From Jaminaea rosea (lineage: Eukaryota > Basidiomycota > Exobasidiomycetes > Microstromatales), in NCBI RefSeq assembly GCF_003144245.1, contig NW_020289977.1, positions 62,001 to 126,000 on the forward strand: DNA of 64,000 nucleotides, read 5' to 3'. Shown here in pieces: positions 2,876-41,068 of this stretch. The notes beneath the pieces were generated by a model. The model ran no database searches. It was not told where the DNA came from and worked only from the letters and a program-made list of their open reading frames with translations. The position numbers were made by a program, and so were the translations under genes. The first letter of the stretch is position 1, and every line of letters begins with the position of its first letter.

Positions 2876-5800
2876 CTACTTCTTTTCCTCGTCCTTCCCC
2901 TTGTCTCCATCCCCTCCGCCAGCGCCTACGCCCGGTACCAGATGCGAGAGGGCAGACGTGGCTGCGTTGATGACCGAGGAGGGAGCGCCGAGCAGTGAAG
3001 AGGGAGCAGCGGTGGTGCTTCCCTTCTTGTCCGAGGACTGATGAGCAGTGGCCTGGCCGTCACTTGCGGGGGTCTCCTTGCCATCCAATCCACCTAGGAG
3101 CGTCGACCCAGACGAAGCGCGACTAGAGCTCGATCGGCTGCCTCCGGGCGTCCTCACCTCCGCGGCGGACGACGACAACACTGCTTCGCCCTTGGTACCG
3201 GCCTCCATCCTCAACGCAGCCAGATCAGTGTGGTGCCCTGTCCCGCTCTTGCTGCTCGCACCACTACTCCTCCTCCTCAACTGCTTAGCAAAATCGTCCC
3301 CGGCATCCAGCGCTGGTGACCCAAAGGCTCCCTGCTCGAAGCGCGGACGCGGGATCAGGTCGGTCGTGTAGCGTCGGAAGTCCGGGCTAGGCTTCTGCGG
3401 CGTGAGGACGACGTCGTCGCGATCTGGAGGGAACTGGCTCGCTACGCCCTCCAGGTCGAGATGTTGCACCGCGCTGCTCGTCGTGCTGTCGACGCTTCCT
3501 CGGGGCTTGTGACGAGCAGAGTCGGGTAGCAGGCGAAGGGAGGCGGAGCGTGTGGGAGCATTCTCCACAGAGGGAGTGCGCGGGGGCATACCAACGCGAT
3601 CCTTGCTGGCCTGACGTTCTTCACCTTCTTGCGGGCGAGGGGCGTTGCTGATCGCACGACGACGGTAGCGTGGTTGCTGAGCTGCCGGGTCATCTGGTCC
3701 ACCGCCTACAGAGATGCTGTTGAGCGTCTGACGAGGGCCGCGCACTGCCTGCGTAGTGGCGGGAGGGGCACTGCTAGCTACCACTGTGTCGTCAGCCGCG
3801 ACTGAGCTGGGCGTCTCCTGATTAGGCGTGCCCCCCGCAGGCGTCATAGCGATGCTGGACTTGGTTGGGCCAGAAGGAAAGGCCCTGCCTCCCATGTGCT
3901 CGCCCAAGGCCGACTCTCCAGAGGGGGTGATGGGGGAGGGGGCCGTGCCCGTGTCTGTGCTGTAAGGATCGGGCGAAGAGAGAGCGCCAAGTCCATGGCT
4001 ATTGCGCTTGACGCGGGAGAGGTCTGAGCTTGACCCACCCGACGAGGAGCCGGAGGATGCTTCGGAGGGTAGACCAGGCCGAAGAGAATCCATACCACCG
4101 CCCGCGTTGGAGCCGTTCGACTTGGATGGAGTGGTCTTTGCACTTTGGTAGTCCTGACTAGCAGTACTCGCGAACGCGCGACTGCCCACCGACGAGTCAT
4201 CGAAGCTGTGTCTGCGCGACGACCCGACGTCGTTATCGGGCCCCTCTCCTTCCTCCTCCCCATCCGCATCTCCGTCAGCCGTAGCAGCAGAGTCGGCTGT
4301 ACTCTCATCCCCATCTTCTCCACTCTCTCCGAACAAGGCTTCATACTCGCCCTTGACCTCGTCCGCCTCTTTTTGAAGCGCGCCCTTGAACTCCTGCAGC
4401 GAATTGATCAGCTCCACCTCTGCAAACTTGCTGAAAGGCTCGGGCCGCTCCCATTGCTCGATAATGCCGTGATACGCAGAGAGCCAAGGGTGCTTGAGCG
4501 CATCGGCGGCGCTGAGCCTCTCGCGAGGGTCCCAGGCTAAAAGCTTGTCGAGCAAGTCGAGCAGACCAGGCGAGGCACGCTTGAGGATCTTGCTGAGCGG
4601 GACCGGTGCTTGCTTCGGCAGAGACTCGACGTAGACGCGAGCACGCTCTGAGCTGATGCGGTCGATGACCGACTGCGAAGGTGGGCCAAGCACGCTGTGG
4701 ATGCGCGCAATCTGGTCGACGTAGTCTTTGCCGTCGAACAAGGGCTTGCCAGACGCCAGCTCCGCGAGAATACACCCGACGGACCACATGTCGATCTCTG
4801 TGCCGTAGCCCTCGCGGAACCCTAGCATGATCTCGGGAGCGCGATACCAGCGCGTGGAAACGTACTCGGTGAGCGGGCCGCCGGGGAAGTCGAGGCGGGA
4901 AGTGCGGATTGGCGGCAGCGTCTTCGGAGGGATTGAGGTCGCAGATGAGGATGACGGCCCGTCGACCTGCGGCGCATCTGCCACTTTGCTTGATTCTTCT
5001 TCTTCGGTCGCGGGACCAGCAAAGGCCCTCGCTAGACCAAAGTCACAGATGAACAGAGCGCAGTCGGCGTTGACGAGGAGGTTGCCCGGCTTGAGGTCGC
5101 GATGAATGATGTTGGCTGCGTGCATGTGGCGTACTCCTCGTAGCAGCTGGGCTGCAAAGTACTGCAAGTGGGCATCGGAGAGGGCCTGACCAGAGCGGAT
5201 GATCTGGCTGAGGTCGGCCTCGCTCGCTGAGAGGACGAGGTAGATTTCGGAAAAGTCCTGGCAGCGTGGCGCGGGAGAGGGAGGGCATGATGATTAGTTG
5301 GGGAGCGACGCATATAGTCGCCGCACCGCCCGTACTCACGATGAATGTGGTATCAAAGTCGATGAGGGCCGTGCAGTTCTGATTCTTGAGCATATGTCTG
5401 AGCACTGCCACCTCGCGCAGCGCCCTCCTCGCGAGCACGTCTCGCTCAAAGACGCGCGTGACCTTCTTGATGGCTACGTTGGTATCGAGCTCTTCATCTC
5501 GAGCTAGTGCAACGCATCCGTATGCACCGATGCCCAGCTCGCGTAGGAAGGTGTAGCGCTTGGGTACGTGGAAAGGAACACCTAAACAGCTAAAGGAATG
5601 GTAGCCCTTTGCTGCCAGCTTGTGAGCCGAGAGCGGGTGGTCTTCGCTATTGTGTCGGGGAAGATTCGGGGGCGGATTTGTACTGGATGCATTAGAGGCT
5701 TTGCGTGTCGTCCTTGACCTTGATCGCATCCCTTGCCTCTGGCCGACTTGCTGCACCTGAGCGGCAGATGCTACGCTAGCGCTTGTACATGAGGACGCCG

Positions 5801-6005
5801 TTGCCGACAGCGGCACAGCGGGTGCGGGTGCGGATGGCTGAGAGGATAGTGAGGTTGCCTCATTGCTGTTGTTGACTCGAGTGGCAGAAGAGCGACGAGG
5901 AGGCGTCGTCTTTGCTGGGGGCGTGGCTACTCTATGTGGTGCTGACGACGACTCGGCGACGGGCTGGTCCGCCGTCGCCGCCGCCTTCTCGTGATTGATG
6001 TCCAT
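2876..6005 (-). CDS. MAP kinase of the Slt2/Mpk1 type with activation-loop insertion
   Basis: Serine/threonine kinase of the MAPK family. Exons are 5340-6005 and 2876-5257, with an 82-base intron. In the 1015-residue model, residues 1-147 are disordered. The kinase core follows: glycine loop GIGAYGCV (about 158), lysine in VAIKKV, HRDLKPGN (about 274), DFGLAR (about 294), phosphorylation motif TEY (about 352) and STRWYRAPE. LVNADC before DFG and the overall spacing resemble cell-wall-integrity kinases (Slt2/Mpk1). Two oddities stand out. DFG and TEY are about 55 residues apart instead of about 15, and the C-terminus carries some 450 residues of Ser/Pro/Gly-rich tail. The start is the first ATG at 6005. 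An open extension to about 6104 has only a TTG codon, so an upstream exon is possible. Confidence 0.85.
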
Positions 6006-8197
6006 TTCGCTGTCCCCCGAGGACGGGGAGTAAGGTGCGCCCTTGTCCTCGCTGCGGACGATGCGCGAGACTTGTCCCTTGAGAGCAGCTGCGTTTGCAG
6101 CCAAATAGCTATAGAGGGCGTAAGACGTCTGTTGGACTACAATGGTGGGCCAGAGGCGGTAGAGGCGGTGGAGCTAAAGAGAGAAGCAGAAGCGCCGATT
6201 GGTTGGACCTTAAGGGCGGTGGCGGCCACGAATCAAATGAGTGAGGGGGTGGACCCTACGAAGGAGCGTAATTGGGCGGCGCTCGGCGGCGAGTTCGTGA
6301 TGCTGTGCCTGACTGAGCGTCGTGATGATCGGCGGCGTAACTCGCCTTGGCTGATGCCGAATGCCAGGATCGCGCTTCTCGGGGCGGGATGATGTTGATG
6401 TTGAGGGCAAGCAATTGCTCTTGCTCGTTGCTCCGGGGGATCGCTCGCCGCGGATCGAGAGATGTGTCGTTACGGGCCGCGGGAGACGACGAAGGAAGCT
6501 CGAGATTCGAGGCTCGCGGGGTCAGGAGCAGGGGCCGTACGGCGGGGGGGAGGTGAGGAGACGAGGGAGAGAGATTGCCGTCGGCGCGCGTGACCAGCTA
6601 CGTGTGTGGCTGATTGGCTCGCTCTGGCTAGGAGAGAGAGGAGATGTCGCACGACTCGCGGATTGCGGTGTGATGATGAGGATGGTAGTGAGGATGGCAG
6701 CAACAATCAGACGACGTCGTGGTCGCGATTATGCGCGTGGGCCTGGTGGTGGGCTCGATCGGCCAAATGTTTAGTGAGTTAGCCAGGCTGAGCGGGCGGC
6801 GACGCTCACGCTCGCAGGGTCCGAGCAACGGACGAGGCGAGGCGTGGCGTGAAAGCCTGAGTCAGGTTGTGTGGCGGCAGTCGCGGAAGACAATCGAGAC
6901 AAGCACTCTGCGAGCGACCAAACAGAGAGTAGTCGCAGATGAGTGGTAGTGACGAGGGAGATGGTAATGAGGATGCGAGAGAAAAGAAAAAGAAGAATCG
7001 AGAGGAGCGCCGGGGGGTGAGGGGCGGGGGGAGAGGACTGAGGCTGTGACGAGACAAGACGAGACTCGATGTAGGTTCTCCACGAAAAGCAAACATCAGC
7101 CTCGGCGTAGACATACGTCCTCTCTTCACTCGTCAGACTTTGGGGACGACGGCGGGGATGCAATGGGGGCTGGGCTGCGCAGCGAGATCGCGGTAAAAGT
7201 GGCGTGGCGCTCGCAGCTCTGCGATGACGGCCGGCGCGGACGATGAGCATCGAGCATCGAGGTGCGAGGTGCAAGGTGCAAGGTGCGAGACGACACACAA
7301 TCGAGCAGGGAGCAATGAGTGACGAAGGCTGCTCTCACAGCTACACGTTGCTCCCTATTCCTCCATCCCACCGGCGAGACATCACCAAGAATGGGCTGTG
7401 ACACCTAACCCCCAATTGCCGGCCGTTTGTGAGTGGGTTAGTCGTCGACCGGCCGCCTTGGCTACAGTTAGCTGGGCAATGGACTGTCTGTCACATGGGC
7501 CCTCCTTCTTCGCTCTGGTGCCGCCGTCATGATGATGATGAGCCTTGGCCGGCGGTCTCAGAGCACTAAAGAGCTTCATTGCCTCGCCGATGGCCGTTGG
7601 CATGCCGGCCGCCGTCTTCGCCGCGGATCACCGAGATATCCTGCCACACGCAGGCGTAGACAGCAATGCCCGACGCCGCCGCCGCCGCCGCCGTCTCTCG
7701 TCGATGGCAGGCATGCCTGCACGACGTCTGTCTGTCCGTGGTTCAACTACGACTTCACCCAACCGACACCGCTTCGATGGCGGGATGAACGTTGAACCCT
7801 AGTCGCAGCAGTCCAAACGCGCCTCGCAAAAAAATACTCCCCCATCCCCCCGCCCTGCCCCCCTCCCCTTCTGCCGCTCTGCTGCCGCCTTCACGCCGCC
7901 CCCGATGCCCTCTCTTTTTTTTTTTGGTTTCGAGGCCGAGGTCACGTCACTAATCCTCACAACTCAGCAGAAGCCGCCTCAGATCTCGGTCTCGATGGCA
8001 CTTGCCCCGCCACCTCATCGCAGCGGGCGTGTCGTACGTACGAAGAAGTGACGAGGAGAGGAGCAGCCTTGTCCTGTCGACTGCAACGCGACGCATCCGT
8101 CTCAACTACTCACAGCTCCTCGCTCTCGGACGAATGAGGCGGTCAGATCAGAGTGGCATTGTTGAGCGCGACTCCCAATCACGAGGAGCCCAAATCC

Positions 8198-22000: not shown

Positions 22001-24476
22001 CCGCAGCATGAAGGCCGTAGAGGATGCCCTGCGCAGGATCGCCTCTGGCATCAATGCGAATCAGCACTTCGACGCTGCAGGGCTGCTGGGATTGTGCCAC
22101 GCCTTGATCGGCCGCAATGCCGCCTTCCTCAAGGCGCGCAAGGCTGCAGCGAAGAGCAGCAAAAGTGGTGTAGCGGCGGCCAACGGTTCGAGCGATCTCG
22201 TCCTGCTCAAACGCAAGGACGTCGAAGCGGGCAAGTCTGGCAGCTCATCGCGCGACCACTTTGCCGTCAATGCCTACCGTTTCGTAGCTTTCGGTCTTGA
22301 CCTCCTCATCACGGCGCTGCGTCGCACCCGCTTCGACTTCAGCGACGTTGACGTGCTTGGTCGTCTCGACCCTCTCCTGGCAGACGTGGGCAACACACTC
22401 TATGCAGCAGACAGCTATGTCCTTTCCCTCGGTCTCAAGGCAGCGGGAGCATTGCTGCGTGTTCCCTCCCTCCCCTCTTTGCAGGCAAGTCTGCCCATCT
22501 ACATTCGCCAAACCACCTCCATCCTCACGCGCGAAGCCAATCCTAGCTCGGACGTATCACAATCAGGTCTCAAGACTCTCACCGTCATCCTGCGCGACTG
22601 TCCCTCTGCCGACTTCAAGGAGAAACAACTTTCCGACCTCCTCTCCCTCGTCTTGCCCGAAATTGAGGAGCCGGGTTCGCAGAGCGCCATCTTCGCCTTC
22701 GTCCGCGCCATCGTTTCGCGACGCTTCGTGGTACCCGAGGTGTACGATGTCATGGACCGGGTGGCGGAGATGGTTGTGACCAATCAGTCCTCACAGGTAC
22801 GTGAGGTTAGCCGAGCGGCCTTTTTGCAGTTCTTGCTGGACTACCCGCAGGGCAAGGGGAGACTGAAGAACCAGCTCGAGTTCCTCGCCAAGAACGCATC
22901 GGGGTACACGTTCGAGGCGGGTCGGATGAGCACTATGGAGCTGCTTGGAGCCATCTTTGCCAAGTTCTCGGACGAGGTGCTCAGAGAGTATGGCGAGCTG
23001 TTTTTCGTCACGCTGGTCATGGTGTTGGCTAATGATGAGGCGACAAAGTGTCGCGAGAGGGCAGCTGTCCTTCTGAAGGCGCTGCTCGGCATCATGGGTG
23101 CGGAGCAGCGGGCCCGCTTCGTCGGTATGACTCATGCTTGGGCTGAGGGTCAGAAGCAGGAGCTGGGTCGTGTAGGCTTGCAGGTGTACGGTCTCTTCCT
23201 CGATGCTGGGAGTGTGGACGACGAGGGAGACTCACAGTGGACAAATCGCGCTCTACGCAACGTCCGCAAGGTGCTGAGCGAATGCGCCGACGCTCTCGAA
23301 GAGCTTGAGCAGGAGCAAGCGAGCACCGATTTCGACACGGCTATGGACATCGATCTGGACTGGCAACTCCCCTACCACGCTCTGCAAGTCCTCTTCAAGC
23401 TCACGCGCGTCCCATCGGTCTCAGCCCAACTGTTCACCGCGCCCAACCTGTCCAACAAAGACGTAGCAGCCACCTGGTCCTCGGTGCGTCGTCTCCTCCT
23501 CTTCCCGCACGCATGGGTACGCTCCGCCTCGTCTCGCCTGCTGGGCGCCCTCTTTGCTGGTGTGGGTCAGCCGACGGAGGCGATGCTTCCGAGAAGTGGG
23601 AGCTCGATGCTCAGCGTTGAGAATTTGGTGGACGCGGCAAAGAAGATGAGCCTGCAGTTGAGAAGCGAGGCGTTGGATGACGCGCTGGCGTTGCAGATCG
23701 TTAAGAACCTGCTCTGGGTGGGCAGGGCGTTTGCGCTGGTCTCGAGCGAAGGCGACGAGGGAGAGGCTAGCGGCGACGACGACGACGATGGCAGCAACGC
23801 TGCAGACAGCGAAGACGGCAGTGATGACGATGATGGCGAGGAGGACGGCCCCTCGAAGGTCAAGCGCTCTGGCTCCTCCCTCTCAGCCCCGTTGCCTTGG
23901 CTATTCACCAAGCTTTCCTACCTGGCCCGCCCCTCCGATTCTGCCCCGCTCACGTCGACCTCCATCTTGACGCCACAAAGCGTCCTTCGCTGGTTCGCAG
24001 CAATGGCTCAGCATCTCTCCGTCGAGCGGCTGACCCCCTTCTTGCCGCACATCGTGACACCAATCTGGCGCATCACGGAGACGCGCGCTGATGATCAGGC
24101 AGGTGGCAAGAAGATGAGCGCGGAGGATGGGCCTCAGCAGGCATTGCGTGGATTAGCGATCGAGGTGCAGGAACTCGTGCAGGGGAAAGTCGGGGCGAGC
24201 CGATACGGCAGTGTGGTGGCTCGCGTCGCTGAGCGTGTCAATGAGCGCAGGAGGCAGAGGAGGGAGCAGAGGAGAAGGGCCATCTTTGGCTCCCTTGCTG
24301 GTGATCGAGACGATAATGGTGACGAGGAGGACAAGGAGAAGGCTGCAGCCACGATCGCTCGCAAGGAGAAGCGCAATGCGGCCAAGCATGCCAGTAGGAA
24401 GAGGAAGAACAACAGCATGGAGCGTGGTAGAGGGGTGAGGAGCGCTAGGGGGATGAAGAGGGTGAGGCAGAAGTGA
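16014..24476 (+). CDS. UTP20: U3 snoRNP / SSU processome component UTP20
   Basis: Giant HEAT-repeat nucleolar protein needed for 18S rRNA maturation (Utp20/DRIM family). A single uninterrupted exon encodes 2820 residues, close to human UTP20 in length. Family landmarks are WKDPTQKPYEEKMYALLEQG followed by KFRDELVGLDL; the passage GGVMPLIIRLLFGLAIAKR; FLLDYPQGKGRLKNQLEFLA with YTFEAGRMSTMELL; and YGELFFVTLVMVLANDEATK. The N-terminus is Lys/Arg/Ser-rich, acidic stretches interrupt the solenoid, and the C-terminus is strongly basic (KRKNNSMERGRG and following), consistent with nucleolar RNA binding. The start at 16014 gives MAGDKGKARARP; the open extension upstream lacks an ATG. The 3' end faces the metaxin-like gene 92 bases away. 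Confidence 0.92.
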   Translation: MAGDKGKARARPMSRETAYNKSKARAKAEREAKTRSATGAASASSSSSSSSYSSSAPLTRTMQSFRAMAEDPHPFRYKSFNDRLASVHLSAATGLTSGRGSTLAGLDVHGVAPSADETMRRDEDDDFDTEEARMAALQASTAFGSALNAWSELNLTVPFVALLRSISQQSLSLPLLIHYRSSIVEALCSTLLTRESDSHLAYEPVLDLIPRLALDLGSEFLPVYPPCLDALLKSTTITKNATAGDEQGAARIVEKAFESVAALFRNLAPLILKKADTDDGHDLLRETWTIMRPYMGWVAEEEVPHRTPPHVRRFASEAFSHLLRRSKQQHLRNAATFMLADAQAMLDQEPPRATMSAGVAGVWSEVAKSVDRRLHSQATSHLSALLLAGGREVARARLLVGKLLLTSLVHHGQSAHLAPIFQLLVEWLKQRQESGDTLALEEVIRWLIAAMGTRKGNRVDDICKAQIFAALSNLVASVDQGQDNSFTLALSSLITTALPIGRIPDLVGPGIKIVDKLAKARQQDGTATPLFITVVLSLADSETAWSGFRQFVLPQVLGATLDSISRGEKARAQALHLLASLVEADQLAALEEHAPNVVKWRRVVGEHLELEVAKLDTAIKQGEHSLAATQTPLAALRIVPLFAGNAKIAASLRSCIKMLAGKIGDDEGYQESPVNARSLLAVCATALVAVASSEKALLGDVCSKTLCESALHHLSAHRSALQATLELFNAGKASAEQLVTASTASSLLTSALMSEDEHLRQAATGWVAACSSSGNTALASLFATMSTIEQIPLRVETVRDRNVRLRGLVRELMRLDVEAPNDEEVKHAAQVVCRFVAGTLKLNFKPLWEECRKGLADMVGRFGDTLWEVAFEELVATRSKRTLPAEWSTEEEAKGSLDTVEEDAAEPEPESDLEATFIDPQRSARSQRVHHYWADSHRPLSILLRRQLVKLQTPQGRLDVANYRAQILLLFSEQPQVVEKHNHDFMEHFFGVVEQVGLETREEHATSDEDHESATSLSARLDRLSSYLKVFTKFSNPKALYRSSELHALLYKLVARSEVRLQKLALECVMTWKDPTQKPYEEKMYALLEQGKFRDELVGLDLSANSTAVQPQHRGGVMPLIIRLLFGLAIAKRTSASGAGKRIAILNALSECTPDELGEWVGLMLAPFSDQRHVVSPSPPTAFPQQQEGYLSLLSDVIKHLGAQLVAHWPSLVSVTINLAYHSSLKAAEEGPGRASAQSRDIRQNAVRRLADFYRCPGTEEFDWSAFEPAIQEHLVQPRLPLFAAENTQSPSALLYLFAVWSTRQETLKLLDLVLPSVYAVLAVPSVKPAVVTVILDLIDRLLTFSEDDTAATPQLFVSDLVTGLAPALHRSATASTPDPLLQREVQLLARLASFVDQSSDAELVLSALGPMMKKSNRLIPEKSKADLLATFRDLLLLTDSFKDPQSELFKRHYDLFSSMWSRLRSRDARLNLAGLFEQISRLDTPNLSRVAGWVRALNAYSERRLDEVDFDKRLDAFDELTSEDTPALTAVEWQPIVHNALFFLQDADELVLRTNAAAVLKRFVSSVAVDASHEDLFVRTVFPGLKRTLKARSELVRREALSVLDAAVKELPHLAALDEMRGLLAGGDEEANFFHNIHHVQLHRRARALRRLSDHAATGALKSKTLTEVLLPLIGHFLEAGHTEIGDHNLVNETIACMGSLCRHLQWGAYNGLLWKYLKLADGKTQGEKVFVRTAMGILDNFHFAMEDEIVPEEGDPAAEAEVEVGEEDEAEMAPAPAHKPRDDVQQQKVISSVTTKLLPALMGYLEHHDDKTDDAIRLPIAVGVVRVVDALPSSDKEIHLSKLLNVLSNVFRSKSQETRDLARETLCKTAVALGPARLGQIIKEQRRALTRGPQLAILAFNVHSLLVHLMQSSTNPLTLLDDAVVDAIISIAAEDLFGHTGEDRETIESRTKVKEMRHSKSLDTFEQVSKMVSPQRMRAVLEPLKKVLEETEVPRSMKAVEDALRRIASGINANQHFDAAGLLGLCHALIGRNAAFLKARKAAAKSSKSGVAAANGSSDLVLLKRKDVEAGKSGSSSRDHFAVNAYRFVAFGLDLLITALRRTRFDFSDVDVLGRLDPLLADVGNTLYAADSYVLSLGLKAAGALLRVPSLPSLQASLPIYIRQTTSILTREANPSSDVSQSGLKTLTVILRDCPSADFKEKQLSDLLSLVLPEIEEPGSQSAIFAFVRAIVSRRFVVPEVYDVMDRVAEMVVTNQSSQVREVSRAAFLQFLLDYPQGKGRLKNQLEFLAKNASGYTFEAGRMSTMELLGAIFAKFSDEVLREYGELFFVTLVMVLANDEATKCRERAAVLLKALLGIMGAEQRARFVGMTHAWAEGQKQELGRVGLQVYGLFLDAGSVDDEGDSQWTNRALRNVRKVLSECADALEELEQEQASTDFDTAMDIDLDWQLPYHALQVLFKLTRVPSVSAQLFTAPNLSNKDVAATWSSVRRLLLFPHAWVRSASSRLLGALFAGVGQPTEAMLPRSGSSMLSVENLVDAAKKMSLQLRSEALDDALALQIVKNLLWVGRAFALVSSEGDEGEASGDDDDDGSNAADSEDGSDDDDGEEDGPSKVKRSGSSLSAPLPWLFTKLSYLARPSDSAPLTSTSILTPQSVLRWFAAMAQHLSVERLTPFLPHIVTPIWRITETRADDQAGGKKMSAEDGPQQALRGLAIEVQELVQGKVGASRYGSVVARVAERVNERRRQRREQRRRAIFGSLAGDRDDNGDEEDKEKAAATIARKEKRNAAKHASRKRKNNSMERGRGVRSARGMKRVRQK

Positions 24477-36763: not shown

Positions 36764-37980
36764 GAGTAGACGAGGAGAGGCAGATCAGAGGCGGGCGCAA
36801 CACACAGCACACAAATCTATATCATACGTCATCTTCTTCAAGTCATGGCTTTGGCCTTTTTCCCTGATCTCGTGAGCAACGACGCAGGAAACGCAGGCGC
36901 GGCTTTCTCCTCAACCGTAGGTGGTGGACCGTGCGCGAGCCAAGGGCGGCTCGCTCGTCTCGTCTTGAGGGCAACTCGATCCTCGCGGTCGCCATCGAGC
37001 GCTCCGCCCGCTCATCTCTCGCCGCTCCGCACAGCTGAGCCCTGAATGTGATTGTGCAGTGAGGGCGAGCAGAGCCGCATTGGGCAAGAGATTGCCTGCT
37101 ACGATGCTCAACGAGAGTCGACGGCGTCGACGAGGGAGGGGGTGTGGCTGTGCTGTTGCGAGGATACAAAAGGCCTTTGCTCGCCGCTTCTTGTCTTCTT
37201 ACCACGTCCCTTCCCCTCCTCAGGTCAGCCAGTCGGCACTATCATCAGGCCTCACCTCTGCCCTCACAGCGCTGCTGGTCCTCCCTCGCCTCCTCTTCTC
37301 CACTCGCTCAAGCATGGCCCTCGCGCGTCGCGTCACGTCAAGCTGGCATTCGCCTCGTGCACTTCATCTTCCCCTGTCGCCCCACTCGTCAACCTCGCAA
37401 CCTCAAGGCATCCATCACTCCATCATGGCGCCCACTCGTCAAGCAGCCTCGCATCTACGACAGGTGCAAAGCACCGAGAGCAGCCCTCAATCCACGTGTG
37501 GTCACTCTGCAGTGCAACTCACCAAGCTTAGCATCAGCGGCACTGTATGTGAGTAGCGGTGTGGTTGTGCGCCTGACTCAGATCTCGTTGCTGACGCGTC
37601 GCGCCTCAACCTCGACTCGCTCGCTATCAGTTGCTTGGCTGAGCCTTGCCTTCATCACCTTGGCGCAAGCACGAGTTCGTAAAAAGTGACGATCAAGTCA
37701 CTGCGCATTGGTGAGTGTCAGCGAGCGCAGCAGTGCCTGCAAGAGGGGTGATTGCTTACAGTCTTGCTCCCTGCTACGCGCGCGCTCAGAGCCATCCTGC
37801 CCATCTTCCTCTCAAGTCACGGCTCGCCTTCGTCACCGTCACCGTCACGCAAGATACGGTCTTGGTCAAGTGGACCGGGCCTCGCATCTTTCGTGTTGGT
37901 CACGCAAGCTTGACCTCGAGCCTGTCTCAGGCAGGTAGTTGGTCCACGTCACGGTCACCATAACCATCGTCAGCCCCTCC
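36764..37980. other. Unassigned interval before the endonuclease copies
   Basis: Several overlapping open frames occur on the + strand between about 37050 and 37700 (up to 181 residues), rich in Ser, Arg and His, with no recognisable domain. Splice-like signals are present: GTATGTGAGT at 37543 with TATCAG at 37630, and GTGAGTGT at 37711 with TTACAG at 37761. Spliced leader exons are therefore conceivable, but no continuous frame into the downstream copy could be built with confidence. The segment 37830-37960 has reiterated GTCACCGTCAC-like motifs. Confidence 0.35.
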
Positions 37981-38800
37981 CCAGAAGCCGGGACTTCAGC
38001 AGCGATGACGGAGATGAGAGTGAGCACCAGACGATGTCTCACTTCAACGCATCGAGGCATAAGGAGATTCAGGCCGACCTCTCCAAGCCCTGCCCCTGCG
38101 GAGCTGTTCGCACCTTCTCCATGCTCATGCAAAGTCACTTCGAGGCGGAGCATCTGGTCGCAATGGCCCGCGACATGAGCGCCGTCAGCCTCCTCGACAC
38201 GAGCGTGATCCGGGTCGGCGAGCCCCACACAATGACCATCAAACAATTCATGACTGCGAAGCACGTGAACAACGCCGCGTCAGGAAGGCCAGAGCGACAA
38301 CCCACCATGAAAATGCCACGGGCGGAGCCCGAGACGCTCGCCGCCGGCGGCGCCGGCATCGCACAGATGCCAATCAACCCTTGGCTGATCGGTGCCTGGC
38401 TCGGGGATGGATTCCATTATGCACCGACACTATGCTCGGCGGATGATGAGACTCGCCTCTACCTTTTACGCATCGTTGAGGAGCTCAATGCCTCCAAGCC
38501 CCCTCAAGCTTGGCCCGTCGCCCTCAAGAGCGTCAAGAAGCCGCCTGACTCGCTCGGAGCAAGGACGTCTGGCTACACTCCATCGTCTCAGTGCCGCGCA
38601 CGCAGACAAATTCTCGACGATGCCCGCACCATCGCTGAGGGACTGGGGATCCACGTCGGGAAGGTGGGCACCCGGGCCAATGCCCATCCCACCAAACCCA
38701 GCAAGGTTGATAACCTCGACTACTGCACATTCTCTGGACCTGCCTTGCTCAAGATGTAGCCCTTCATCGTCATATCCTACAAGCGCCTTTGTCACGCTAG
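37980..38800 (+). pseudogene. Intein-type LAGLIDADG homing-endonuclease relic, copy A
   Basis: This segment resembles the endonuclease part of fungal inteins and HO (DOD/LAGLIDADG family), which cut a recognition site to spread their own gene. The open frame with an ATG runs 38034-38759. Readable order: an acidic start (DFSSDDGDESEH), CPCGAVRTFSML, a segment MTIKQFMTAKHVNNAASG resembling the stretch before intein endonuclease domains, and the first LAGLIDADG motif LIGAWLGDG (38385-38411) with its acidic residue. Later comes ILDDARTIAEGLGIHVGKVG, near the end of such proteins. Compared with copy B the middle, including the second LAGLIDADG motif, is absent. The frame stops at 38757 although similarity to copy B continues (PFIVISYKRL). 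It is therefore probably inactive. The family call rests on motifs and on the similarity to copy B. Confidence 0.6.
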
Positions 38801-38835
38801 CAGCGACAGCGGCGATAATAGGACGACCAGCGTGG

Positions 38836-40057
38836 CAGAGAGGACGGCCAGCATGGCAGCGAGGACAATCATAGCGGTAGCGAGGACGAGGCAAATGATC
38901 CTAGACTCGCCATCGACATCGACAGCCAGGACTGGCGGAACGACGGTGACTTCAATCCCGAGTGTCTGCAGGAAATTCAACGCCGTCTGCCTGCGAGCTG
39001 CCCCTGCGGCGGCACGAGGACCTTCACAATCCTCATGCCAAGCGACGAGGAGGCCCAGCACTTCCTCCGAGCGACGCTCAGCCACGACGCTACCTACCTG
39101 CTGGACGCAAATATCATCAGGCCCAAGGAGATCCACTCCTTGACCGTCGCTCAGTTCTTCTCCGCAAAGCACATCGAAAACGCTGCAAAGGGCAGTCCAG
39201 AGCGTCACCCAGCGCTTGAGATGCCCCGCTACCCTTTTGAGACGCTTCCTTCGGGCGGCGCAGAGGCAGACGATATGCCTTTCCCCCCTTACCGCCCCCA
39301 CCCCCACCTCCTCGGCGCTTGGCTAGGAGACGGATGCCAAAAGAGCATCACCATCTTCTCCAGCGACAACGAGATGAGGGAGTGGATCTACAGCCTCATC
39401 ATCAGTATGAATGAGCGCAGGCCTGCCGGCACCCGCCCGCTCGAAGTCACCTCAACCAAGCAATCTCGCGGTCCAATCAGCACCATCGACTGCTGGAGGC
39501 ACAATAAGCTGCCCGCGCGAGGATGGAGAGTACTTCAACCCTCTCCTGAGGGCGATGCAGGAGCTGGACATGCTCGGCAACTGGAAGGCTCGCAGTATCC
39601 CCTGGATTTACCTCATTGCCAGCGAGGGCGTGCGCGCGCAAGTCCTCGCCGGTCGGCTGGACACAGACGGCACTCCCAAGCCCAATAACGGCAGACACTA
39701 CTGCTTCACCCAGTGCGACAAGCATCGCCAAATTTTGGACGATGTCGGCTCGCTGAGGGCTTGGGTATAAGAGTCGGCAAGATCGGCAGCCGCCCCGCGT
39801 ACGGGCCGTACGATTCTGAGCAGTGCAATGGCACGATCGATTACTTCACCCTTTCTCGCCCTGCGCTCATCAAGCTGCAGCCATACATCCTGCTTCCCCG
39901 CAAGCGACTGCGCCACACGCGCTTCTCTGAGCGCGAAGGCCGCTCGATAAGAGTAGAGGAGGTCAGCGAGCTACGCGAGGGCCGCACCATTCAGATGCCT
40001 GGCCGAGAGGCACCTCTGGTCCAGCTTGAGGGAGCATACATGATTCGAAAAGACTGA
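38836..40057 (+). pseudogene. Intein-type LAGLIDADG homing-endonuclease relic, copy B
   Basis: Tandem paralogue of copy A, in the same orientation and starting within about 80 bases of its end. The acidic head (GSEDNHSGSEDEANDPRL) leads to CPCGGTRTFTILMPSDEEAQ and EIHSLTVAQFFSAKHIENAA, then motif one HLLGAWLGDG (about 39305-39334). Next come NPLLRAMQELDMLGNWKARS, IPWIYLIASEGVRAQ, motif two VLAGRLDTDG (39642-39671) and HRQILDD, followed by AEGLGIRVGKIGSRPAYGP. It ends APLVQLEGAYMIRKD at a stop at 40055, where a functional intein would have its His-Asn. The reading frame changes twice (near 39500-39520 and near 39745-39755) without convincing splice sites. I take it as decayed, although unusual introns are an alternative. 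Both catalytic aspartates of the LAGLIDADG pair survive. Confidence 0.62.
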
Positions 40058-41068
40058 GCTGGCAGCAGAATCGCAGGCTCCACCACGGTTCTCCTCACTG
40101 CTCAATTTAGCTCCCACCCATCAGCGAGACTGGCCATATAAGTCTTACACGGAGTACCGTGACCATCGTCGACGCTTCCATCCTCAGCGCGAGGCTCAGC
40201 ATCGAGCGAGTCCCGCGGGCGCAATATCGCCACCTTCACGGACAGGCTCAGCGAAAGCGCTTGAAGACGGCGGATGATGGGCAAGTGAAGGCGGTGGGCA
40301 TGTGACGTGCTGCACTGGTCGAGATGAAATGGGAGAAGGGCTGTAAGCACCTGCCAAACGATAGCGGTGTCAGGGAGGCGGCAGGGCGCTGGCTCAGCAG
40401 CATCATAGTGCGCCGCTCAGACAGAAAAAGAAAGATCTAATGCTTCGCTTGGGAGGCCTCGAGGTGTGGGTGGTCGACAGCTCCTCCACATGTGTACATG
40501 GTGGGTCGAGAGCCACCCAGCTCATGTTCTGCTGCGACGCTCGAGGGGAGGGGAGAAGGAGTAGAGTCTGCGAAACACTCTGAATTTTGTGGTGATCAGG
40601 AGGCGCGCGTGATAGGTGGTGTTGAAGGAGCAAAGACTCTCTGCGTAGCTCAAGGGCTGCTACGATCCCGACGCCCGTGAAGGAGAAGAGGAAAGCCGGG
40701 CCGCCGAGGAGGGAAACTTCGCATGGTGTTCGCGTGGGTGCTGAGAGCGGTACAGAGGAGGGCAGACCCGACGAGAGCGTATGTTCAGAGCCATCGAGAG
40801 CCGTGAACCTGTAACTGATGCCGCTTCAGTCGCATCGCATGATCCAGCCGTCTCGGAGCTGTAGCAGGGCCATGTTGTTGAGTTTGACTAAGACGATGAT
40901 GAAATTGACAAATGTAGCTAGCGAGAAGACGAAGAAAACGAGCAGGGTGCGTCGAAGGCAGTGAAAGCTGGTGCCGGCTGGGTACGACGCTCGCAAGATA
41001 CAGACGCCGGATCGGCGAGTTGATTCTTATCCTACGAAGTTGAAAAACGTGCGCCGAGCGTGTGCTCC
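40058..41068. other. Intergenic, nothing recognised
   Basis: About 1 kb between the endonuclease relic and the 3' end of the secreted-protein gene. Short open frames only, with no motif or repeat of note. Confidence 0.5.

What the first reader, a model, noticed from the sequence alone, without database searches (positions are those of the whole stretch)
37980..40057. Tandem pair of decayed intein-type homing endonucleases outside any host gene
Two adjacent, same-orientation copies share CPCG-x-RTF, the TIKQF/TVAQF-AKH segment, LIGAWLGDG or LLGAWLGDG and AEGLGI-VGK-G. Copy B also keeps the second motif VLAGRLDTDG and an intein-like C-terminal phrase (PLVQLEGAYMI) without the terminal His-Asn. 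Seen in sequence: motifs and duplication. Family knowledge: paired LAGLIDADG motifs of this spacing occur in VMA/PRP8 inteins and HO. Inference: a free-standing, HO-like selfish gene that escaped from an intein, duplicated and decayed to different degrees. Free-standing intein-derived endonucleases are well described in yeasts (HO and its relatives) but I know of no described family in this lineage.
Basis: partly seen in the sequence, partly recalled or inferred. Interest (0 to 1): 0.75.

Follow-up and report, generated by a model that had tools for sequence, protein, structure and literature searches.

The report
Decayed free-standing intein-type homing endonucleases
A leaf-dwelling relative of the smut fungi carries the broken remains of a small family of selfish DNA-cutting genes, related to the cutter inside a yeast intein but standing free in the genome, a kind so far described mainly from budding yeasts.

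Summary
Copy A lacks the second LAGLIDADG motif through an in-frame deletion and ends in TAG where relatives have CAG. Copy B keeps both motifs but has two frameshifts. Alone, the window copies hit no Pfam, NCBIfam or PDB entry. Two more family loci on contig C5 of the same genome supply the link: a six-sequence profile hits PI-SceI, the yeast VMA1 intein endonuclease, at E 6e-8 across both motifs. The genome is Jaminaea rosea (Exobasidiomycetes); its annotation fuses A and B into one hypothetical protein. VMA1 and PRP8 show no intein. Members seen lack splicing residues, a zinc finger and copies of a neighbouring gene's 3' end, so they are neither inteins nor WHO elements. Best reading: relics of a free-standing, splicing-dead homing-endonuclease lineage. 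A and B diverged mostly as working genes (dN/dS about 0.4) before decaying, unlike a recent duplicate pair. The Hint-like N-terminal part is weakly supported; cutting and homing are inferred.

The parts
37986..38759 (+). Copy A: open frame from the pre-endonuclease region (CPCG motif) through the first LAGLIDADG motif, then an in-frame deletion of the second motif (profile positions 192-247), then the AEGLGI...SGPALLKM segment and TAG
   Evidence: relative's protein P0001 is 85% identical with the same deletion and the same end
38091..38117 (+). CPCGAVRTF motif of copy A
38385..38411 (+). First LAGLIDADG motif of copy A, LIGAWLGDG (Asp kept)
38634..38669 (+). AEGLGIHVGKVG of copy A
38760..38798 (+). 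Remnant past the TAG of copy A (PFIVISYKRL...), resembling QPYILLPRKRL of copy B
   Evidence: by eye
38822..38920 (+). Acidic linker of copy B, joined closely to the end of copy A with no Hint-like sequence between the copies
38921..39530 (+). Copy B, first reading frame: CPCG region and first LAGLIDADG motif; the first frameshift lies at about 39511-39535 (placed by eye)
38999..39025 (+). CPCGGTRTF motif of copy B
39308..39334 (+). First LAGLIDADG motif of copy B, LLGAWLGDG
39486..39755 (+). Copy B, second reading frame, with the second LAGLIDADG motif
39642..39671 (+). Second LAGLIDADG motif of copy B, VLAGRLDTDG
39746..40057 (+). Copy B, back in the first reading frame after the second frameshift (about 39746-39757): AEGLGIRVGKIG, intein-like tail PLVQLEGAYMIRKD, stop
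38756..38838 (+). Intron of the public gene model joining A to B (GTAGCC...GGCAG); judged artefactual
   Evidence: splicing it out, with the next intron, reproduces P0004 exactly
39405..39480 (+). Intron of the public gene model inside copy B (GTATGA...ATCAG); it removes a segment that is in frame in A, P0001, the C5 copy and P0002
32098..36763 (+). Upstream neighbour, ubiquitin carboxyl-terminal hydrolase (two open frames; UCH and DUSP domains)

Best explanation
The segment is a graveyard of two members of a free-standing homing-endonuclease family in Jaminaea rosea. Each intact member would have had an acidic linker, a CxCG-containing region and a two-motif LAGLIDADG endonuclease of the VMA1-intein (PI-SceI) type; at the C5 loci a Hint-like but splicing-dead part precedes these. 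Such a protein would cut a specific site on a homologous chromosome lacking the gene, and repair would copy the gene into the break, without protein splicing. Once sites were filled, selection lapsed: copy A lost the second active-site motif and the end of the protein, and copy B took two frameshifts. Shown: homology, motifs, breakage, three loci, intein-free VMA1 and PRP8, old divergence under protein-level constraint. Inferred: cutting, homing, the target and the Hint ancestry.
For: PI-SceI is the best PDB match of the open-framed C5 paralogue (E 8.7e-5, aligned over both motifs) and of the six-sequence family profile (E 6e-8; of 10 sequences listed the 5 significant ones are PI-SceI forms or the VMA1 precursor). 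hhalign gives 97% probability, E 6.6e-11, against a PI-SceI sequence recalled from memory whose residues 209-387 equal the printed chain. Pfam Hom_end is above its cut-off for that paralogue (21.7 and 25.1 against 21.1 bits); LAGLIDADG_3 is above its cut-off for the second C5 copy (23.6 and 25.7 against 22.5 bits). The final aspartate of each motif is kept in every aligned row that keeps the motif. VMA1 and PRP8 show no intein. Ten paralogue comparisons give dN/dS of 0.20 to 0.61, with third-position excess at P below 0.01 in five of eight tested. In three searches of a 5.8-billion-protein database the family was seen only in J. rosea and in four unnamed assembled proteins, plus one distant bacterial helicase with LAGLIDADG_3.
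Against: Window copies alone give no domain hit. The Hint assignment is weak: P0003 against Hint_2 E 3.5e-5 but below cut-off (24.7 against 28.4 bits); 2 of 5 separate units match it, best E 0.014; nothing in the PDB; hhalign against PI-SceI fails (0.1% probability). The lysine equivalent to PI-SceI K301 is not at the aligned place. Both AlphaFold2 models were poor (mean pLDDT 38 and 43), so there is no structural support. Third-position excess was not significant in three of eight pairs, and the pairs with B and C5 have dN/dS of 0.50 to 0.61. No empty-site allele, target or activity was seen.
Confidence: 0.75

Rival explanations
1. A single functional multi-exon host gene, as the public annotation has it (525-residue hypothetical protein BDZ90DRAFT_258815).
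For: The gene model exists and is listed for NCBI, UniRef and nr; its exons can be placed exactly, with GT...AG introns; copy A's frame is open and P0001 is gap-free against it over 273 residues.
Against: The intron needed in B removes a segment that is in frame in A, P0001, the C5 copy and P0002; the first intron has donor GTAGCC; the model still ends out of frame in RAWV and drops the conserved AEGLGI...LVQLEGAYMI end; its start MSHFN is not a Met in P0001. Absence of stops between A and P0001 is not evidence of constraint: 21-22% of neutral simulations also have none.
Confidence: 0.08
2. WHO-like elements: each copy arrived by homing beside a target gene, replacing that gene's 3' end, so tandem divergent copies record successive insertions.
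For: Tandem members about 40% identical and partly broken, like the 24-55% among WHO proteins of one cluster (PMC7282813); three loci; at C5 relics of four Hint-like units, two CxCG units and two endonuclease ends in one array.
Against: No fragment of a neighbouring gene was seen repeated at the window or C5 725-kb locus or within the 9 kb around the third locus; no zinc finger; upstream neighbours differ (ubiquitin hydrolase, mitochondrial carrier).
Confidence: 0.2
3. Remains of an ordinary intein or of a host gene that once held one.
For: Closest solved relative is an intein; B keeps an intein-like tail.
Against: No extein-like domain in the frames of the copies (the flanking intergenic sequence was not scanned with Pfam); VMA1 and PRP8 carry no intein; no Cys1, TxxH His or terminal His-Asn in the members that reach those positions.
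Confidence: 0.1
4. A mitochondrial intron LAGLIDADG gene transferred to the nucleus.
For: Such a transfer into a nuclear genome is reported (PMC7593156, title and start of abstract in the listing).
Against: The significant solved-structure matches are all PI-SceI or the VMA1 precursor; the stretch has the 60% G+C of the rest of the window. No mitochondrial genome was searched.
Confidence: 0.02

Closest known systems
PI-SceI / VDE, the VMA1 intein of Saccharomyces cerevisiae
   Same: Two-motif LAGLIDADG endonuclease, aligned over both motifs (E 6e-8); similar motif spacing; B's LVQLEGAYMI resembles, by eye and from the recalled sequence, PI-SceI's FELQELKEDDYYGI
   Different: Not inside a host gene; no splicing residues; extra acidic linker and CxCG region; VMA1 in this genome has no intein
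WHO elements of Torulaspora and Lachancea (PMC7282813, parts 1, 2, 4 and 5 of 9 of the text read)
   Same: Free-standing, no exteins, lacking the C-terminal intein motif; clusters mixing divergent copies and pseudogenes
   Different: No zinc finger, no FBA1 or host-gene 3' fragments seen, another phylum
HO mating-type switching endonuclease
   Same: Free-standing relative of the VMA1 intein (relationship from PMC7282813)
   Different: HO is domesticated and has a zinc finger; the members here are broken and lie at three or more loci. No HO sequence was compared here
Basidiomycete inteins in PRP8 and RNA polymerase genes (PMC5784728, PMC10849329, passages seen)
   Same: Nuclear, in part with an endonuclease domain, some in Ustilaginomycotina
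   Different: Those are in-frame inserts with splicing residues; the passages seen mention no free-standing ones

Membership tests
LAGLIDADG endonuclease, PI-SceI/Hom_end type | Significant profile match over two LAGLIDADG motifs | tested here: met
   Met through the family profile and the C5 member; window copies alone give none
LAGLIDADG endonuclease, PI-SceI/Hom_end type | Active-site aspartate in each motif | tested here: met
   Kept in copy B and in the C5 copies; copy A and P0001 have lost motif 2. Roles recalled
LAGLIDADG endonuclease, PI-SceI/Hom_end type | Catalytic lysines (K301, K403 of PI-SceI; roles recalled) | tested here: inconclusive
   K301 site aligns to Asn or Arg with a Lys two places earlier; a Lys-Arg pair lies near K403 (by eye)
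Intein | In-frame insertion in a host protein | tested here: not met
   Copies lie between a ubiquitin-hydrolase gene and a gene without Pfam match; no extein domain in their frames
Intein | N-terminal Cys/Ser, TxxH, terminal His-Asn (motifs recalled) | tested here: not met
   Five Hint-like units start with Met and read TxGxN in place of TxxH; tails of B, C5 copy 2 and P0005 end without His-Asn. No such unit was found in the window
Hint domain | Profile match above the curated cut-off | tested here: not met
   P0003 to Hint_2 24.7 bits against 28.4; 2 of 5 units match at best E 0.014; PDB and hhalign tests negative
WHO element | C-terminal zinc finger | tested here: not met
   Tails of B, C5 copy 2 and P0005 end soon after LVQL with no CxxC
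WHO element | Duplicated 3' fragments of a neighbouring target gene | tested here: not met
   None seen at the window or C5 725-kb locus; the third locus only against itself and the other regions
WHO element | Cluster of divergent copies mixing sound and broken genes | tested here: inconclusive
   Divergent and broken copies present; no fully intact member seen
HO | Cleaves the mating-type locus | not testable with these tools
   No activity data

The most novel reading that the evidence does not exclude
A second, independent origin of free-standing, splicing-free homing elements from inteins, in Basidiomycota and without the zinc finger, that re-targets itself by exchanging tandem partial cassettes of the DNA-binding second half: at the C5 locus the two second-half types appear in the opposite order in J. 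rosea and in its unnamed relative (7 of 7 informative sites).
Probability: 0.15. Interest if true: 0.8.

Novelty: new variant of a known kind. Interest (0 to 1): 0.5.

Why it matters
Free-standing intein relatives are, as far as the papers seen here go, a budding-yeast story that ended in HO and mating-type switching. Relics of a similar lifestyle in a basidiomycete without the zinc finger suggest that inteins can leave their host genes more than once, and give an independent case for asking what a homing endonuclease needs in order to live without splicing. They also show that such genes can sit in public proteomes as fused hypothetical proteins with no domain label.

Tried and rejected
Pfam, NCBIfam and PDB with the window copies alone: nothing. 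AlphaFold2 of P0003 and P0002 with alignments of 4 and 7 sequences: mean pLDDT 38 and 43; no fold search was run on such models. Hint profile against the PDB and against PI-SceI: nothing significant. Host-gene fragments as in WHO elements: none seen; the other short matches there were a 36-nt L006-L007 match, an 81-nt match of the acidic linker to window 23774-23854, and two of 44 and 54 nt on C7 and C4, the last lying in the carrier gene. Rfam at gathering scores over the window and three loci: nothing. Genome-wide Hom_end: nothing, but the C5 member, which passes that cut-off on its own, was missed too, so the negative is weak. Constraint on copy A from the absence of stops between A and P0001: rejected, 21-22% of neutral simulations match it. 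Uneven divergence between relatives was tested in five comparisons (P 0.02, 0.18, 0.002, 0.59, 0.006) and not pressed. Flanking 24-nt direct repeats (37957-37980 and 40156-40179, 75% alike) were taken as chance, since six direct-repeat families appear in 4.3 kb.

Rows left out: the profile A3 used 6 sequences (C5 copy 1, read-through B, A, P0001, P0002, C5 copy 2); P0003 and the C5 812-kb copy were left out and P0005 was not yet known. Of ten codon comparisons, eight were tested for third-position excess; A/C5 and B1/C5 (third-position shares about 0.39 and 0.38) were not. Genome searches score only the best candidates, so three loci is a lower bound. The protein database runs scored 1223, 7998 and 7999 candidates, the last two cut to those sharing most words. 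Literature: PMC7282813 parts 1, 2, 4, 5 of 9; passages of PMC5784728, PMC10849329, PMC7766764; listings only for the rest. Searches behind the statement that no such family was found in print for this lineage.
Full report
What is there. The window is contig C3:62001-126000 of a 16.6-Mb genome in 21 contigs. A database protein whose contig has C3's exact length (1,448,610 bases) is named a hypothetical protein of Jaminaea rosea, a Microstromatales member of the Exobasidiomycetes.

State of the copies. Against the family profile, A covers positions 2-191 and 248-302 in one open frame: an in-frame deletion has removed the second LAGLIDADG motif. It ends in TAG; past it the resemblance runs on for about ten codons. 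B covers 1-186, 184-263 and 262-322 in three successive frames, so it has two frameshifts. A and B helped to build that profile, so their scores are not independent. B's tail (PLVQLEGAYMIRKD, stop) lacks His-Asn. No Hint-like sequence was found in the window (A5 profile, six frames, pieces of 15 residues or more, E up to 1).

The public gene model. P0004 joins A and B into 525 residues. Its exons are 38034-38755, 38839-39404 and from 39481 on; splicing them reproduces it exactly. The second intron removes a stretch that is in frame in A, P0001, the C5 copy and P0002, and the model still runs out of frame before B's conserved end. I read it as an automatic bridge over a broken gene; no transcripts were available.

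Family identity. The window copies alone hit nothing in Pfam, NCBIfam or the PDB. The own-genome searches gave two more loci, C5:724.6-727.6 kb and C5:812.2-813.1 kb, minus strand. The first hits PI-SceI at E 8.7e-5 over both motifs and Pfam Hom_end above its cut-off. The six-sequence profile hits PI-SceI at 6e-8; the 5 significant sequences of 10 listed are PI-SceI forms or the VMA1 precursor. A profile comparison with a recalled PI-SceI sequence agrees (97% probability). A weak NCBIfam match of P0005 is to an intein-bearing protein (E 4e-4, far below cut-off), and one of six database hits of the profile is a bacterial helicase with LAGLIDADG_3.

Neither inteins nor WHO elements. The copies lie between a ubiquitin-hydrolase gene and a gene without Pfam match. 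VMA1 reads uninterrupted through its P-loop. PRP8 is one 2312-residue frame in which seven Prp8 domain families and a JAB domain match in order, with no Hint or LAGLIDADG family. LAGLIDADG_3 at E up to 1 gave two matches genome-wide, both in the C5 member; the Hom_end search gave none and missed even that member. The five Hint-like units aligned begin with Met and read TxGxN where inteins have TxxH. There is no zinc finger in the tails seen and no repeated fragment of a neighbouring gene was seen. WHO clusters in budding yeasts mix divergent copies and pseudogenes in a similar way (PMC7282813), so the lifestyle is comparable but membership fails.

The Hint question. Four tandem Hint-like relics precede the C5 endonuclease. 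P0003, a protein of an unnamed relative with two such units, matches Hint_2 at E 3.5e-5, below that family's cut-off. Single units match it in 2 of 5 cases, best E 0.014. Their profile finds nothing in the PDB and does not align to PI-SceI. Intein ancestry of this part is therefore a reasonable inference, not a result.

History. Ten codon comparisons within the genome give dN/dS of 0.20 (two CxCG units), 0.26 (two C5 endonuclease ends), 0.28 and 0.33 (Hint-like units), 0.39 and 0.40 (A with B's pieces), 0.30 (A with C5) and 0.50 to 0.61 (B's pieces with C5), with high or saturated dS. Eight were tested for third-position excess: five are significant at P below 0.01 (shares 0.42-0.52) and three are not (0.38-0.41), those three involving B's later pieces. 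So most divergence between A and B came while both were coding. P0001, from an unnamed contig, is 85% identical to A over 273 residues without gaps and shares both the deletion and the end. That puts A's truncation before that split, but a neutral simulation leaves no stops in 21-22% of runs, so constraint is not shown.

Signs of recombination at C5. In the second-half segment, seven informative sites of seven pair C5 copy 1 with P0005 and C5 copy 2 with P0002 rather than by apparent position (support only 83/89 on about 82 columns). P0003 has two Hint-like units and one CxCG unit where J. rosea has more. The array seems to have been rearranged by exchange between repeats. A TAG at the same codon in copy A and in C5 copy 1, where copy B and C5 copy 2 have CAG, may be coincidence or exchange.

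How it probably works. An intact member would be a site-specific nuclease that converts empty chromosomes by break repair, with no need of splicing since it lies outside genes. Cutting, target and homing are inferred from the family, not shown. What is shown is a broken, multi-locus, free-standing family related to the VMA1 intein endonuclease. I found no description of such a family in this lineage in the paper searches made, which cover open-licence PubMed Central papers only.

Noticed in passing
L006 (C5:721000-730900) 3397-6518, minus strand: Best-preserved family locus: relics of four Hint-like units, two acidic-linker plus CxCG units, one endonuclease ending in TAG and a second endonuclease end with tail, downstream of a mitochondrial carrier gene.
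   Followed up: yes
L007 (C5:808000-817000) 4284-5059, minus strand: Third family locus, heavily broken; the frames just upstream (5512-6904, minus) look by eye like an OTU-type and an HNH-type segment, but Pfam gave nothing significant.
   Followed up: partly
L006 6612-6655 and C7:537480-537523: A 44-base sequence, 93% identical, lies beside the C5 array and on C7 about 0.9 kb from an HNH-nuclease-like frame. A 36-base core has just these two places at up to 3 mismatches. Unexplained; could be captured filler or a shared site.
   Followed up: partly
window 38757-38759 and L006 3945-3947: Premature TAG at the same codon (CAG in copy B and C5 copy 2) in two members at different loci.
   Followed up: partly
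window 38091-38117: The CxCG region of the fused gene model P0004 gives a weak Zn_ribbon_CSL match (E 0.021, 15 against 29.2 bits); possibly a metal-binding remnant placed before the endonuclease.
   Followed up: no
window 37957-37980 and 40156-40179: 24-nt direct repeats, 75% alike, bracket the pair of copies; taken as chance in this stretch.
   Followed up: partly
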